A stretch of DNA of 64,000 bases, taken from assembly GCF_030158815.1 (NCBI RefSeq), contig NZ_BPFZ01000016.1, forward strand, positions 1 through 64,000, written 5' to 3'. This document shows, in pieces, positions 10,192-26,464 of this stretch; position 1 is the first letter of the stretch, and each line of letters opens with the position of its first letter. The stretch is from Candidatus Phycosocius spiralis. GTDB lineage: Bacteria; Pseudomonadota; Alphaproteobacteria; Caulobacterales; Aquidulcibacteraceae. Below the pieces are notes generated by a model. The model was not told where the DNA came from and made no database searches. It worked only from the letters and a program-made list of their open reading frames with translations. The position numbers and the translations under genes were made by a program.

Positions 10192-11465
10192 GCCATGGTC
10201 GCGCCCGCCCGTTTGGCGTATGGGAACGCACTCTTGCCGCGCGTTATCTGCGTGCGCGCAAGCAGGACGGTGGCGTCGCGCTGATTTCCCTAATTAGCTT
10301 TATCGGCATTTTTCTAGCCGTCGCTGTTTTGATCATCGTGATGAGCGTGATGAATGGCTTTCGCGCCGAGCTTTTGGGCCGCATTCTAGGCGTCAATGGT
10401 CATGTCTTTGTCGATGTTCGCAATATGCCTATTCCCCAAGCGCAGGCAATCCTTGTTAAAGCCCAAGCGCTGCCCGGTGTTGTCGATGTCATGGCCAAGG
10501 TGGAAGGCCAAGTGATGGCGGTGGGCCAGGGTGGTGCAGTTGCCCGCGGCGCGATGGTGACTGGGCTTTCGCGAGCAGATTTTATCAAGCTCAAGTTGGT
10601 CTCATCCAATATAGTCGGGGGGAATTTGAGCACTTGGGGCAAGGGTGAGTATGGTGGTGATGAGATTGCCATGGGCTCAAGACTGGCTGAAGCTTTAGGC
10701 ATATTGCCTGGCGATTATGTTCAACTGATCTCACCCCAAGGTGCCTCCACCCCTTTTGGCACTACCCCGCGCATAAAAGATTATCGGGTGTCGGCGATTT
10801 TTGACATCGGTATGAGTGAATATGATGCCACCTTTATTTATATGCCAATAAAACAGGCCCAGTTGTTCTTCTCAAAAGAAGCCAGTTGGGATAGCCTTGA
10901 AGTGCGGATGAAAGATCCCGATGATGCTGATCAATTGGCGCAATCGGTTGTAAAGCTTGCCGATAATCGCTTTGTTACCACATGGCGGCAACAATCAGAA
11001 AGCCTGGTTTCGGCTTTGCAGGTAGAGCGTAATGTGATGCGCTTGATCTTGATGCTGATCGTGGCCATTGCCGCCATGAACATTATTTCTGGCTTGGTGA
11101 TGCTCGTCAAAAACAAAGGTCGCGACATTGCGATTTTGCGTACCATGGGAGCCACGCGAGGCTCCATCATGCGCGTCTTTATGATGGCGGGGGCAAGCGT
11201 TGGGGTTCTAGCGACCTTGGCGGGCGCTGTTGGGGGCACTTTGTTTTGCCTCAACATAGGGGCGATCCAAAAGGGCGTTGAGTTTATTTTTGGTCCGGTC
11301 TTTAACGCCGACATCTATTTTCTAAGCCAAATCCCGGCCAAGGTAGAGTGGCATGAGGTAATAACTACCGCACTATTTGCCGCCATCGCCAGCGTCGTGG
11401 CGACGCTGCCACCTTCTTGGCGGGCTTCCAAGCTCGATCCGGTTGAGGCTTTGCGTTATGAATAG
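10188..11465 (+). CDS. lolC: Lipoprotein-releasing ABC transporter permease LolC/LolE
   Basis: This inner-membrane permease, together with the ATPase LolD, extracts outer-membrane lipoproteins for transfer to LolA. The protein has about 425 residues. It shows an N-terminal helix after [11 protein letters not shown], a large periplasmic domain, and three C-terminal FtsX-type helices ([20 protein letters not shown], where the [14 protein letters not shown] coupling helix is diagnostic). It begins in an ATGA overlap with proS and ends overlapping lolD by eight bases, so proS, lolC and lolD look like one operon. Only one permease gene is present, suggesting a homodimeric LolC/E-type complex rather than the separate LolC and LolE of enterobacteria. 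Confidence 0.93.
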
Positions 11466-12138
11466 TCCAGTTTTGCGTTTAACCGATTTGCGCCGGATTT
11501 ATGCGACCAAAGCCGGCCCGCTTGAAGTTCTCAAGGGCGTGAACCTCACCATCATGCCCGGCGAAATCGTAGCTTTGATTGGCCCGTCGGGATCTGGCAA
11601 GTCATCCTTGCTCCATGCCGCTGGCCTATTGGAGATCTTTCAAGGTGGGCGGGTTGAGCTTGCTGGCATTGATGCGACGGCACTACCCGACGCCGCCCGC
11701 ACGGCCTTACGCCGTACCGCACTGGGCTTTGTATACCAGTTTCACCACTTGTTGCCGGAGTTTACAGCCCGCGACAATGTGGCGCTGCCCCAATGGATCG
11801 CTGGCGTCAGCCAGAACGAGGCTAAAGCCCGCGCACAAGCGCTATTGGAACTTATGGGGCTGAAAGATCGCGCAGAACACCAGCCCGGCGAATTATCAGG
11901 GGGCGAGCAGCAGCGAGTGGCGATTGCGCGCGCTTTAGCTAATCAGCCGGCCTTGTTGATCGCCGACGAGCCCACCGGCAATCTTGATCCGACCACTTCG
12001 GCCTTTGTGTTTGAAACCTTTCGTAAGGCCACGCGGGAGGAGGGGACTTCTGCTCTCGTCGCTACCCATAATGTGGATTTGGCGCGCCAGATGGACCGCG
12101 TGTTCCGTCTCGACAATGGCCGTCTCGTTGAAGGCTAA
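11458..12138 (+). CDS. lolD: Lipoprotein-releasing ABC transporter ATP-binding protein LolD
   Basis: This 226-residue ATPase powers lipoprotein release from the inner membrane. It has the Walker A GPSGSGKSS, a Q-loop region (LGFVYQFHHLLPEF, typical of LolD), the ABC signature LSGGEQQRVAIARAL, Walker B LLIADEPTGNLD, and the switch histidine in ATHN. The start ATG 11458 lies inside the last codons of lolC. No strong terminator follows before the LexA-controlled promoter at 12193, so some read-through toward the small downstream gene is possible. Confidence 0.95.
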   Translation: MNSPVLRLTDLRRIYATKAGPLEVLKGVNLTIMPGEIVALIGPSGSGKSSLLHAAGLLEIFQGGRVELAGIDATALPDAARTALRRTALGFVYQFHHLLPEFTARDNVALPQWIAGVSQNEAKARAQALLELMGLKDRAEHQPGELSGGEQQRVAIARALANQPALLIADEPTGNLDPTTSAFVFETFRKATREEGTSALVATHNVDLARQMDRVFRLDNGRLVEG

Positions 12139-12192
12139 GTTTCTTTTCAAACTATGCCATCGGCTGCAATTGTCATGCACAGAGGGCTTGTT

Positions 12193-12221
12193 TTGAGAAC
12201 AAAACATGAATAGAACATAAT
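12193..12221 (+). promoter_or_regulatory. Promoter of the sidA-like gene
   Basis: TTGAGA (12193-12198) and CATAAT (12216-12221) are separated by exactly 17 bases and match the housekeeping sigma-factor pattern closely. The -10 hexamer overlaps the LexA box, so a bound LexA would block RNA polymerase. Transcription would start roughly 10 bases before the ribosome-binding site GGAGA at 12232-12236. Confidence 0.7.
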
Positions 12222-12227
12222 AAGAAC
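12213..12227 (+). promoter_or_regulatory. LexA (SOS) box, GAAC-N7-GAAC
   Basis: GAACATAATAAGAAC is a perfect match to the alphaproteobacterial LexA operator, a direct repeat GAAC-N7-GAAC (GTTC-N7-GTTC on the other strand). It covers the -10 element of the promoter ahead of the 28-codon gene at 12243. A further GAAC half-site at 12197-12200 is not at the right distance to form a second box. Confidence 0.8.
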
Positions 12228-12242
12228 ACACGGAGATTTAAG

Positions 12243-12329
12243 ATGGCCCAACTTCAAGATGCAGCAGCCTTCGCTGCAATTCTGGCTTTTACGCTTATGG
12301 CCTGGGGCTGGGGTGCTGTTATCGGCTGA
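12243..12329 (+). CDS. sidA: SidA-like SOS-induced inner-membrane micropeptide (cell-division inhibitor)
   Basis: This is a 28-residue peptide with a short polar start (MAQLQDAAA) and one hydrophobic helix rich in Ala, Leu and Trp (LAFTLMAWGWGAVIG). It has a ribosome-binding site GGAGA at 12232-12236, a LexA box on its promoter, and its own terminator. In Caulobacter, SidA is a 29-residue LexA-controlled membrane peptide that blocks division by acting on FtsW/FtsN after DNA damage. Size, membrane helix and SOS control all fit. The position directly before dnaE also agrees with my recollection of the Caulobacter locus. Sequence identity to SidA could not be tested here, so the name is an inference from architecture. 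Confidence 0.75.
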   Translation: MAQLQDAAAFAAILAFTLMAWGWGAVIG

Positions 12330-12347
12330 GGATGGTTTAAGTTCTGA

Positions 12348-12369
12348 TGTCGGCTGGGGCTGACATTTT
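12348..12369 (+). terminator. Rho-independent terminator after the sidA-like gene
   Basis: A seven-pair stem (TGTCGGC with GCTGACA, one G-T pair), loop TGGG, is followed by TTTT at 12366-12369. It lies 18 bases after the stop codon and separates the small gene from dnaE, so the micropeptide is probably a monocistronic unit. Confidence 0.65.
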
Positions 12370-12424
12370 CCTGCAAGTCCTGTCACACTAGCACCATGGT
12401 TTTTGGGTCGTAGTGGGGTCTTTG

Positions 12425-15400
12425 ATGGTAGAGTTTAAGGGTGTTGGGCATGGAAACACAGGTTTTATAAATGAGACGCCCAAGCCACGTCCTGCAATGG
12501 GGCCAAAGTTCGTGCATCTGCGTGTGCGATCGGCCTATTCTCTTTTAGATGGGGCGATGACCGTTAAAAACCTTGCAGACATTGCGGCCAAATCTGGCTG
12601 CGCTGCTGTTGGCATTTCTGACCCTAATCTTTTTGGTGCTTTGGAATATTCAGAAGCCATGGTGGAGAAGTGCATACAGCCAATCATGGGATTGTGTCTG
12701 CCCGTTTGCTTTTTAGCAAAAAAGCCAGCAAGCCAGCCCGGTCCAGATGGAAACATTGCTCTAATTGCCCAAAATAGTGCCGGATGGGCCAATTTAATGG
12801 CTTTATCGAGCCAATCATTCCTGGATATCCCTGCTGGCTCCTTACCCCATGTGACACTGGCGCAAGTTCTAGCCCACCATGAGGGGGTGATCTGTCTCAG
12901 CGGTGGTCGCGAAGGCATTGTCTCGCGCGCATTAATGGCCAATTTAGAGGCTGAAGCGGCATTTTTGGTTGAGCAATTACGCACAGCATTTAAGGACCGA
13001 TTTTATATTGAGCTACAGCGCCACGCTATGGCGGATGAGGCGATTACAGAGCCTCAATTGATTGATTTAGCCTATCATTTGTCCTTACCCTTGGTGGCCA
13101 GTAATGACGTCCGCTTTGAAAGCCCAAATCGACATGGCGCGCAGGACGTATTAATGTGCATTGGCCAAGCCACCCGCGTGGCCGATGAAAAGCGCGATCG
13201 CGTGTCGCCGCATCATTGCTTCAAAAGCGAAGCCGAAATGATCGAATTATTTTCCGATTTACCAGAAGCCCTCGACAACAGCGTGGATATCGCGCGCCGT
13301 TGTGCGGTACGTCCCTTGGTACGGTCTCCAATCCTGCCCCGGTTTCCCTCCACGGAAGGCCGCGATGAGCCTGAAGAACTTGCCACCCAGGCACGTGCCG
13401 GTTTGGAAGCCCGGCTCGCCAAGAGGCCACCGGTTATGGCGCGGGAAATCTATCAACAGCGCTTGGAGCATGAAATCAATGTGATCAATCGGATGGGCTT
13501 TGCAGGCTATTTCCTCATCGTGGCTGATTTTATCAAATGGTCAAAGGAAAATCATATTCCGGTGGGGCCGGGGCGGGGCTCCGGGGCGGGATCTCTGGTC
13601 GCTTATTCTTTGACCATTACAGATCTTGATCCTTTGGCCTTTGGCTTGTTGTTTGAACGCTTTTTGAACCCAGAGCGCATTTCCATGCCCGACTTTGACA
13701 TTGATTTTTGTCAAGAAAAGCGTGATCTTGTCATTGATTATGTACAAAAGAAATATGGTGCAGACCGGGTAGCGCAAATCATCACCTTTGGCACCTTACA
13801 AGCGCGTGCGGCGCTGCGCGATGTCGGCCGGGTGCTCGACATGTCCTATGGCCAAGTCGATCGACTAGCCAAGCTTGTGCCCAATAATCCAGCGGCTCCG
13901 ATCAGTTTAGCCCAAGCCATTAAGGAAGAGCCGCGTCTTAGAGAAGAAAGCGGGCGGGACAGCGATGTCCGCATGCTTCTAGAAACAGCTATTGAACTAG
14001 AGGGTCTTTATCGCAACGCTTCCACCCACGCCGCAGGTGTGGTAATCGGCGACCGCCCGTTGCACCAATTGGTACCCCTTTACAAGGATCCAAGATCAAG
14101 CCTTCCTGCCACCCAGTTCAACATGAAATGGGTAGAGCCTGCGGGCCTTGTCAAATTCGATTTTCTAGGTCTTAAAACTCTAACTGTCATCCAACGCGCA
14201 CTTGATTTTTTGAAGCTTCGCGGCGTTGAGGTAGATCTCGACACTTTGCCCTTTGATGATCCTAAGACCTATGAATTATTAGCTTCGGGTAAAACCATGG
14301 GTGTGTTTCAGCTTGAAAGTCAGGGCATGCGCGATACGTTGCGCAAAATGCGGGCCGATACGCTCGATGACATTATTGCTTTGATTTCTCTCTATCGTCC
14401 TGGCCCTATGAAGAATATTGAGACCTATTGTGATGTGAAATTCGGTCGCAAGCAGGCGGATTATCTTCACCCTAGCCTTGAACCCATTTTGAGAGAAACC
14501 CAAGGCGTCATCATTTATCAAGAACAGGTGATGCAGATTGCCCAAATTCTTTCGGGCTATTCACTGGGGGAAGCGGATTTATTACGCCGTGCTATGGGGA
14601 AGAAAAAGCCCGAAGAAATGGCAATGCAAAAGGATCGTTTTGTTTCAGGTGCCACAGAGCGCGGCGTCGAAGCGGAATTGGCCGACCACATCTTTGAGCT
14701 GGTCAGTGAGTTTGCGGGTTATGGATTTAACAAATCCCATGCCGCCGCTTATGCTGTTATCGCGTACCAAACGGCATGGCTCAAGGCGAATTACCCAGTA
14801 GAATTTATGGCCGCCTCCATGTCCTTAGACGTGGATGACACCGATAAATTGGCCGCTTTTGTCCAAGAAGCCAAAAGCATGAAGATTAAGATTTTATCAC
14901 CTGATTTAAACTCATCCGATGCAGATTTTAGTGTGCAAGGTGATGCGATCCGCTATGCGCTTGGCGCAATTAAAGCGGTCGGAGTTGCTGCCATGAGGCA
15001 AGTCGTGGCAAATCGAAATGCCCAAGGCGTATTTAAATCCTTGCACGATCTTGCCGAACGCGTCGATCCAAGGCTATTAAGTCGGCGCACGTTTGAGACT
15101 TTAGCTAAGGCTGGCGCTTTTGATAGCATTGAGCCTAATCGGGCATTAGTGTTTGCGGCCACAGATCAATTGGTGGCCCATGCCAATGCCGCAGCTAGTG
15201 ATCGACAAAGTGCACAGACGAGCTTGTTCGGCGATAGCGCCCTACCCCCAAGGGCTCCCCTTCCTAGTGTCAAACCTTGGACTTCGCAAGAACGCTTGGA
15301 TTATGAATTTCAAGCCCTTGGTCTGTTTTTATCGGGTCATCCACTGGAGGATCTCACAGATGCTCTGCGGCGACGCCAAACCGTATTTTATTCAGAAATC

Positions 15401-15919
15401 TCCTCCAAAATGCAAGGTGTCGACGCCATATTTAGGATGGTAGGGGTTGTACGTGGGCGTAAAGAGCGCCCAGCCCGGGATGGGGGAAAATTTGCTTGGG
15501 TGACTTTAAGCGATCCAACCGGTGAATTTGAGGTAATGATCATGCCCGAAGTGCTAGATGATGCTCGCGCTTTATTGGACCCTGGCACTTCCATCAGCTT
15601 TCGCGCCAAGGCTCGGCTGCGCGATGGTGACTTAAAGCTAACCGCAGAACATATTGAATGGCTCGACCAAGCCGATCTTACAGGGTGCAAGGGCGTGAAG
15701 GTCTTTTTGGAACGGGGGGCAGCTTTGAGCGACCTTGCTAAAGTCACACAAGCCCTTCGTAATAGCCCATCCTCGAATTGTGGTGAGTTGCGCATCGTCG
15801 TTGAATTATCCGATGGCAGCGAAGTCGAGCTGCAAGCTCCGGGCCGTTTTCCCATTGATGTCTCTGCCCGCCGAGCCCTTAAAAGTGCAGCGGGTGTTCA
15901 ATCCGTCGCTGAGTTTTGA
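12425..15919 (+). CDS. dnaE: DNA polymerase III alpha subunit
   Basis: This is the replicative polymerase catalytic subunit, about 1164 residues. Visible parts are an N-terminal PHP domain (FVHLRVRSAYSLLDGA, then SDPNLFG), the palm with PDFDIDF (about residues 422-428, catalytic aspartates), GRGSGAGSLVAY, the fingers and helix-hairpin-helix region, and a C-terminal OB fold (DAIFRMVGVVRGRKERPA and following). It has the E. coli DnaE layout, not the SOS mutasome DnaE2 type. The start is uncertain: GTG 12413, ATG 12425 and ATG 12497 are all in frame and none has a strong ribosome-binding site. ATG 12425 is a compromise; family N-termini fit 12497 equally well. Confidence 0.93.
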   Translation: MVEFKGVGHGNTGFINETPKPRPAMGPKFVHLRVRSAYSLLDGAMTVKNLADIAAKSGCAAVGISDPNLFGALEYSEAMVEKCIQPIMGLCLPVCFLAKKPASQPGPDGNIALIAQNSAGWANLMALSSQSFLDIPAGSLPHVTLAQVLAHHEGVICLSGGREGIVSRALMANLEAEAAFLVEQLRTAFKDRFYIELQRHAMADEAITEPQLIDLAYHLSLPLVASNDVRFESPNRHGAQDVLMCIGQATRVADEKRDRVSPHHCFKSEAEMIELFSDLPEALDNSVDIARRCAVRPLVRSPILPRFPSTEGRDEPEELATQARAGLEARLAKRPPVMAREIYQQRLEHEINVINRMGFAGYFLIVADFIKWSKENHIPVGPGRGSGAGSLVAYSLTITDLDPLAFGLLFERFLNPERISMPDFDIDFCQEKRDLVIDYVQKKYGADRVAQIITFGTLQARAALRDVGRVLDMSYGQVDRLAKLVPNNPAAPISLAQAIKEEPRLREESGRDSDVRMLLETAIELEGLYRNASTHAAGVVIGDRPLHQLVPLYKDPRSSLPATQFNMKWVEPAGLVKFDFLGLKTLTVIQRALDFLKLRGVEVDLDTLPFDDPKTYELLASGKTMGVFQLESQGMRDTLRKMRADTLDDIIALISLYRPGPMKNIETYCDVKFGRKQADYLHPSLEPILRETQGVIIYQEQVMQIAQILSGYSLGEADLLRRAMGKKKPEEMAMQKDRFVSGATERGVEAELADHIFELVSEFAGYGFNKSHAAAYAVIAYQTAWLKANYPVEFMAASMSLDVDDTDKLAAFVQEAKSMKIKILSPDLNSSDADFSVQGDAIRYALGAIKAVGVAAMRQVVANRNAQGVFKSLHDLAERVDPRLLSRRTFETLAKAGAFDSIEPNRALVFAATDQLVAHANAAASDRQSAQTSLFGDSALPPRAPLPSVKPWTSQERLDYEFQALGLFLSGHPLEDLTDALRRRQTVFYSEISSKMQGVDAIFRMVGVVRGRKERPARDGGKFAWVTLSDPTGEFEVMIMPEVLDDARALLDPGTSISFRAKARLRDGDLKLTAEHIEWLDQADLTGCKGVKVFLERGAALSDLAKVTQALRNSPSSNCGELRIVVELSDGSEVELQAPGRFPIDVSARRALKSAAGVQSVAEF

Positions 15920-25411: not shown

Positions 25412-26464
<1,053 letters not shown>

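What the first reader, a model, noticed from the sequence alone, without database searches (positions are those of the whole stretch)
12193..12369. SOS-controlled 28-residue SidA-like division inhibitor hidden between lolD and dnaE
A complete minimal transcription unit lies in a gap that gene finders leave empty: promoter TTGAGA-17-CATAAT, perfect LexA box GAACATAATAAGAAC over the -10, ribosome-binding site GGAGA, a 28-codon single-helix membrane peptide, and its own terminator. It matches the known design of Caulobacter SidA. If right, it shows the SOS checkpoint peptide outside Caulobacter proper, with a sequence quite free to drift.
Basis: partly seen in the sequence, partly recalled or inferred. 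Interest (0 to 1): 0.85.

Follow-up and report, generated by a model that had tools for sequence, protein, structure and literature searches.

The report
Unannotated SidA-family SOS membrane micropeptide
A 28-residue membrane peptide gene that lies hidden just before the DNA polymerase gene dnaE, behind DNA-damage (LexA) control sites, is very probably a diverged relative of Caulobacter's cell-division inhibitor SidA, and similar peptides sit at the same spot in many other Alphaproteobacteria.

Summary
The micro-gene is real. All nine genomes read from the window's genus hold the peptide between lolD and dnaE; 18 of 19 variable sites are third codon positions (pN/pS 0.027). It is very probably a SidA ortholog: upstream of dnaE, 78 of 80 named Caulobacteraceae loci hold a 29-30 aa one-helix peptide behind LexA boxes; the C. 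vibrioides one matches NCBIfam SidA (72.4 bits), and its profile aligns with the window's type. That curated model misses the window peptide.

The anatomy needs correction: the conserved promoter is TTG(nnn)-17-TAGAAC with two tandem LexA boxes; the claimed -35/-10 pair is not conserved, the terminator is weak, and within the genus the peptide does not drift.

It reaches further: box plus peptide in 44 of 44 and 21 of 22 junctions of two other Caulobacterales families, 15 of 49 in the window's own, 0 of 19 in another, and 11 of 68 in other Alphaproteobacteria. An acidic residue directly before the helix stands in 151 of 155 distinct peptides. Damage induction and division block are inferred from SidA, not tested.

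The parts
11458..12138 (+). lolD, lipoprotein-releasing ABC transporter ATPase (upstream neighbour)
   Evidence: TIGR02211 LolD 250.6 bits, best NCBIfam match though below its 307.75 cut-off
12188..12193 (+). probable -35 element (TTGTTT; TTGCCA or TTGTCA in the eight other genomes of the genus)
   Evidence: Alignment of nine genomes; fit to a Caulobacter-type promoter is recalled
12197..12211 (+).
   Evidence: GAACAAAACAAGAAT in the other eight genomes; the same GAACAAAAC type recurs in many junctions of four Caulobacterales families and, as perfect GAACAAAACnnGAAC, in several other Alphaproteobacteria
12211..12216 (+). probable -10 element TAGAAC, overlapping both boxes
   Evidence: Conserved in eight of nine genomes (L030 reads TAGCAC), 17 nt from the -35
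12213..12227 (+). LexA box 2, perfect GAACATAATAAGAAC, over the -10 and expected start site
   Evidence: a perfect box at this place in eight of nine genomes of the genus, one half-site mismatch in L030
12232..12236 (+). ribosome-binding site GGAGA
   Evidence: 6 nt before the ATG
12243..12329 (+). 28-codon ORF, SidA-family single-helix peptide; acidic D6 directly before the helix
12346..12367 (+). hairpin TGTCGGC-loop-GCTGACA; weak terminator candidate
   Evidence: kept in four of five relatives folded, no T-run there
12413..15919 (+). dnaE, DNA polymerase III alpha subunit (start codon uncertain)
   Evidence: NF004226 1419.2 bits

Best explanation
The ORF is the window genus's ortholog of SidA. 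LexA sits on two tandem operators that cover the spacer, the -10 and the expected start site, and keeps the gene off. After DNA damage RecA-stimulated LexA cleavage frees the promoter, the 28-residue peptide inserts into the inner membrane as one helix, binds the FtsW/FtsI/FtsN septal wall-synthesis complex and holds it inactive until LexA returns. Shown here: the gene, its purifying selection, conserved operator sequences, place and homology. Inferred from C. crescentus SidA: LexA binding, induction, membrane insertion, FtsW target, division block.
For: Peptide in nine of nine genomes of the genus, pN/pS 0.027. Same place, upstream of dnaE, holds a 29-30 aa helix peptide behind a LexA-type box of at most one mismatch in 78 of 80 named Caulobacteraceae loci, 52 of the 78 with a perfect box. 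The C. vibrioides (L104) peptide matches NCBIfam SidA at 72.4 bits and a Phenylobacterium one (L130) at 63.8, cut-off 35. Across 398 genomes of the order 42 pass that model, and the hit in G108 (C1:1739093-1739176) is the peptide read upstream of its dnaE at 1739252. Window-type profile against Caulobacteraceae SidA profile: hhalign probability 84.8, E 6.6e-6 for a single comparison, ungapped over 24 columns; the SidA HMM scores the window type at median 7.7 bits, reached by 0 of 100 shuffles, and the best of 61 helix segments from window proteins reaches 3.6. Acidic residue directly before the helix in 151 of 155 distinct peptides. The genome encodes LexA with a GAACN7GAAC box before it; ssb and an MmcB-like gene carry one too. 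FtsW is present, 194 of 379 aligned residues identical to C. vibrioides FtsW, with F145 and A246 (suppressor sites named in PMC4211646) kept, A31 not. SidA is a 29-residue inner-membrane SOS protein acting on FtsW (PMC4211646, passages).
Against: The curated SidA model does not detect the window peptide at E up to 10; identity to C. vibrioides SidA is only 11 to 21% in the 14-row alignment. Profile scores between such short hydrophobic peptides are modest, and several family pairs are weak or not significant (f3 against f5 0.3%, f1b against f3 4.2%; the reverse HMM test, window type against SidA, has 24 of 1320 shuffles at or above the median). No expression, binding or phenotype data. GAACN7GAAC is not enriched genome-wide (37 sites against 210 for the reversed pattern). 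In the window's own family the scan finds the unit in 15 of 49 junctions only, so it is dispensable.
Confidence: 0.85

Rival explanations
1. A SidA homolog by descent that has changed its job: an SOS-induced membrane peptide acting on another target (another divisome protein, a protease, membrane potential) rather than on FtsW.
For: Sequence outside the acidic residue and helix is very variable between genera; the FtsW A31 site differs; no functional test.
Against: Same place, box type, length and acidic signature in the lineages that have it; strong constraint in the genus.
Confidence: 0.1
2. A leader peptide or upstream ORF whose main role is to tune dnaE expression under SOS control, the operator serving dnaE as much as the peptide.
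For: Nearly always directly before dnaE; several genera of the family without the peptide keep a GAACAAAACnnGAAT-type box 63-100 nt before the DnaE match.
Against: Residues, not just translation, are conserved; the homologous peptide of C. crescentus is a proven division inhibitor (PMC4211646, passages); the G013 copy lies on a contig stretch where no dnaE was found; spacing to dnaE varies widely.
Confidence: 0.04
3. Chance ORF and chance LexA box in an intergenic gap.
For: The box alone is near chance level in the window.
Against: Nine of nine genomes, pN/pS 0.027; box plus helix ORF in 86 of 141 junctions against 2 of 1410 shuffled and 0 of 141 reverse strands.
Confidence: 0.01

Closest known systems
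SidA of Caulobacter crescentus (CCNA_02004; NCBIfam NF033228)
   Same: Place upstream of dnaE, LexA-type boxes in the promoter, 28-29 residues, short N-terminus with an acidic residue at the membrane edge, one helix, almost no C-terminal tail
   Different: Sequence diverged below detection by the curated model; the N-terminal arginines of SidA (RVARE) are missing in the window peptide (AQLQD); function not tested
DidA of C. crescentus
   Same: Small damage-induced single-helix division inhibitor working through FtsW/I/N (PMC4211646, passages)
   Different: 71 residues, SOS-independent (DriD), binds FtsN
YneA (Bacillus), SosA (Staphylococcus), ChiZ (Mycobacterium)
   Same: Damage-induced small membrane proteins predicted or shown to act on FtsW or late division (PMC13396833, passages)
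   Different: YneA and ChiZ have LysM domains, SosA an extended helix; no sequence relation tested here; low-confidence AF3 models in that paper place SidA on the other side of FtsW TM7
SulA (E. coli)
   Same: LexA-controlled division inhibitor
   Different: Acts on FtsZ; not widely conserved beyond gamma-proteobacteria (PMC4211646, passages); sequence relation not tested

Membership tests
SidA | Very short (about 29 aa) single-helix peptide | tested here: met
   28 aa, hydropathy maximum 1.88 over 19 residues
SidA | LexA operator sequence in the promoter | tested here: met
   Two boxes, conserved in the genus; binding itself not tested
SidA | Genomic place directly upstream of dnaE, as in C. 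vibrioides | tested here: met
SidA | Sequence homology to SidA | tested here: met
   Profile-profile 84.8% and HMM median 7.7 bits, 0 of 100 shuffles; modest because the peptides are so short
SidA | Match to curated equivalog model NF033228 over 35 bits (a detection threshold, not a biological feature) | tested here: not met
   No match at E up to 10; the L076 peptide of the Caulobacter-type family also falls just short, 33.5 bits
SidA | Induction by DNA damage through RecA/LexA | not testable with these tools
   Needs RNA or reporter assay
SidA | Inhibits division through FtsW/FtsI/FtsN | not testable with these tools
   FtsW present, F145 and A246 sites kept, A31 not

The most novel reading that the evidence does not exclude
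SidA is not a Caulobacter invention but the best-known member of an ancient, largely unannotated SOS checkpoint family of Alphaproteobacteria: a 25-47 residue single-helix peptide with an acidic residue at the membrane edge, encoded directly upstream of dnaE behind a TTGAC-GAACAAAACnnGAAC type of promoter, and lost repeatedly. In some lineages the operator outlived the peptide, which would tie SOS control to the replicative polymerase gene itself.
Probability: 0.65. Interest if true: 0.8.

Novelty: new member of a known kind. Interest (0 to 1): 0.68.

Why it matters
[quoted passage not shown] A short, syntenic ORF before dnaE with LexA-type boxes gives a direct way to look for it. The 155 distinct peptides read here point to one nearly invariant acidic residue at the membrane edge as the feature to test in the SidA-FtsW interaction. 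The curated 29-residue SidA model passes 42 of 398 genomes of the order and so sees only a fraction of the family.

Tried and rejected
Rfam on the whole window: no match at gathering scores. Pfam and NCBIfam on the window peptide: none. The terminator was set aside as unproven. Chance was rejected. In the same test six permuted half-sites in place of GAAC still gave 4 to 33 of 141 junctions with box plus ORF (CGAA highest, 33), because the real ORF stays in place; GAAC gave 86 of 141. A -35-like TTG stands 8-15 nt before a LexA half-site in 49 of 87 junctions with a peptide, against 14 at a control distance downstream, so the -35 is not seen everywhere. Modell 2011, the SidA discovery paper, is not held, so whether it already lists homologs outside Caulobacter could not be checked. 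Four paper searches on SidA or SOS division inhibitors in related bacteria (listings seen, plus passages of three listed papers) showed no report of SidA outside Caulobacter. That f3 holds Caulobacter rests on G108, whose DnaE stretch is 95% identical to that of a named Caulobacter locus (L091).

Rows left out: five of the family's DnaE hits (G036, G065, G067, G074, G083) were not fetched. Of 345 order genomes with a DnaE hit 140 besides the window were fetched, chosen by hand to cover genera (52 of the 60, the rest from the cut list). Of 371 named candidates the tool kept 80. Of 111 class genomes with dnaE 70 were read. The class peptide set (21 peptides) leaves out L342, the least typical of the 11 class hits, and adds relatives and pattern-search peptides, so it is not an unbiased sample. 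In one search the start codon of each peptide was picked by length and Shine-Dalgarno match, so lengths are partly a choice.

Full report
The sequence. Between lolD (stop at 12138) and dnaE (about 12413) lies a 28-codon ORF, 12243-12329, with GGAGA six bases before its ATG (neighbours identified). The perfect repeat GAACATAATAAGAAC lies at 12213-12227. The published Caulobacter LexA motif is GTTCN7GTTC, the same motif read on the other strand (PMC12700426, passages).

Is it a gene? In the window's genus all eight other genomes hold the peptide at 93-100% identity, between lolD and dnaE. Across the nine coding sequences 19 sites vary: 1, 0 and 18 at codon positions 1, 2 and 3. pN/pS over all pairs is 0.027. 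The window and L027 differ by 14 synonymous and no non-synonymous changes. Only residues 3 and 14 vary.

Promoter. The spacer holds a second LexA box, GAACAAAACATGAAT (12197-12211), one base from the first. Pairs of boxes recur in many junctions of other families. That TAGAAC fits the Caulobacter-type -10 is recalled. The same genome has perfect boxes before lexA, ssb and an MmcB-like gene, although such boxes are not enriched genome-wide. Binding was not tested.

Terminator. The hairpin 12346-12367 has z = -1.13. It is kept in four of five relatives folded; L028 folds otherwise, and none of the five has the T-run. I do not count it as shown.

What it is. I read the DNA before dnaE in 80 named Caulobacteraceae loci (best 80 of 371). 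78 of 80 have a 29-30 aa helix peptide behind a box of at most one mismatch (52 of the 78 with a perfect box); the two others, L128 and L167, have only 223 and 158 bases upstream. The C. vibrioides DSM 9893 peptide (L104) scores 72.4 bits against the curated SidA model NF033228, cut-off 35. sidA is CCNA_02004 (PMC10769358, passage) and dnaE is CC1926 (PMC1839093, passage); that these are neighbours across the two numbering systems is my inference. So the gene upstream of dnaE in Caulobacter is sidA, and the window's gene is its positional counterpart. Sequence agrees: profile-profile 84.8% over 24 ungapped columns, and 0 of 100 shuffles reach the median HMM score of the window type against the SidA profile; the reverse test is weaker (24 of 1320 shuffles), and some other family pairs do not match. 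The curated model itself does not see the window peptide; in the order it passes 42 of 398 genomes.

How far it reaches. I read 140 further junctions plus the window's. With a box of at most one mismatch and an ATG helix ORF of 24-40 aa the counts are: window's family 15 of 49 (3 of 12 genera), the Caulobacter-type family 6 of 7 (7 of 7 when GTG starts are allowed), two other families 44 of 44 (17 genera) and 21 of 22 (6 genera), one family 0 of 19 (9 genera); reverse strand 0 of 141; shuffles 2 of 1410. The one miss among the 22 (L238) shows the peptide by eye, with damaged boxes. A profile search of 60 genomes of the window's family gives 16 genomes with clear matches (E at most 4e-9) and then a gap (next 4.4e-4), so the rest seem to lack it, some genomes being incomplete. 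Several genera without it keep a GAACAAAACnnGAAT-type box before dnaE. In G013 the peptide and its boxes are on a contig stretch where no lolD or dnaE was found.

Beyond the order. Of 114 class genomes searched, 111 had dnaE; I read 70 junctions, 68 outside the order. Eleven of 68 have a perfect LexA box within 620 nt, and all eleven have a helix ORF of 24-50 codons behind it; shuffles gave a box in 16 and box plus ORF in 1 of 680, reverse strand 0 of 68. A promoter pattern search of 385 genomes hit 40 (45 places listed; 3 for the reversed control). Of 30 loci read, 12 run into dnaE and 12 of these 12 carry a helix peptide. The other 18 do not run into dnaE in the stretch held; by eye they include recA (L388) and ssb (L372), two with a similar peptide near a contig end (L387, L392) and one cut by unread bases (L386). 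The class profile aligns with the Caulobacteraceae SidA profile (91.1%) and with two further Caulobacterales families (96.9%, 94.1%), more weakly with the window's type (35.3%). The lineages are unnamed.

Signature. In 151 of 155 distinct peptides the residue just before the longest run free of D, E, K, R, N, Q and H is D or E (f1 8 of 8, f3 64 of 66, f4 38 of 40, f5 20 of 20, class set 21 of 21). In the window it is D6.

Mechanism. By analogy with SidA (29-aa inner-membrane protein, SOS-induced, acting on FtsW; suppressors in FtsW and FtsI; PMC4211646, passages) the peptide should hold the septal wall-synthesis complex inactive after DNA damage. FtsW is present, with the F145 and A246 sites kept and A31 changed. 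A 2026 paper reports low-confidence models with SidA on TM7 of FtsW (PMC13396833, passages). None of this was tested for the window's peptide.

Verdict. Real gene, probable SidA ortholog, correct core interpretation with corrected anatomy. The larger point is a patchily kept family of SOS-type micropeptides before dnaE across Alphaproteobacteria.

Noticed in passing
L044, L046, L065, L066, L067, L070, L072 (junctions of the window's family): A single LexA-type box GAACAAAACnnGAAT (or close) stands 63-100 nt before the DnaE match although no micropeptide was found there; either a relic or direct SOS control of dnaE.
   Followed up: partly
L011 (G013:C215:2319-2402): A window-type peptide with LexA-like boxes lies on a stretch where no lolD or dnaE was found, so the unit may have moved.
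   Followed up: partly
L037-L064, dnaE starts: GAATC (a GANTC methylation-type site, recalled) stands just before the dnaE start in many genomes of the family; possible cell-cycle control, not examined.
   Followed up: no
L171 (G000:C1:100146-100160): The identical 15-mer GAACATAATAAGAAC occurs a second time in the genome, with no ORF of 100 codons or more starting within about 350 nt downstream.
   Followed up: partly
window 13655-13669 and 25706-25720: Two further perfect GAACN7GAAC sites, inside dnaE and inside a 339-codon ORF that looks like ilvC (name recalled); probably chance.
   Followed up: partly
L217, L235, L236 (family f5): Some genomes have two perfect LexA boxes close together before the peptide, suggesting tighter repression.
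   Followed up: no
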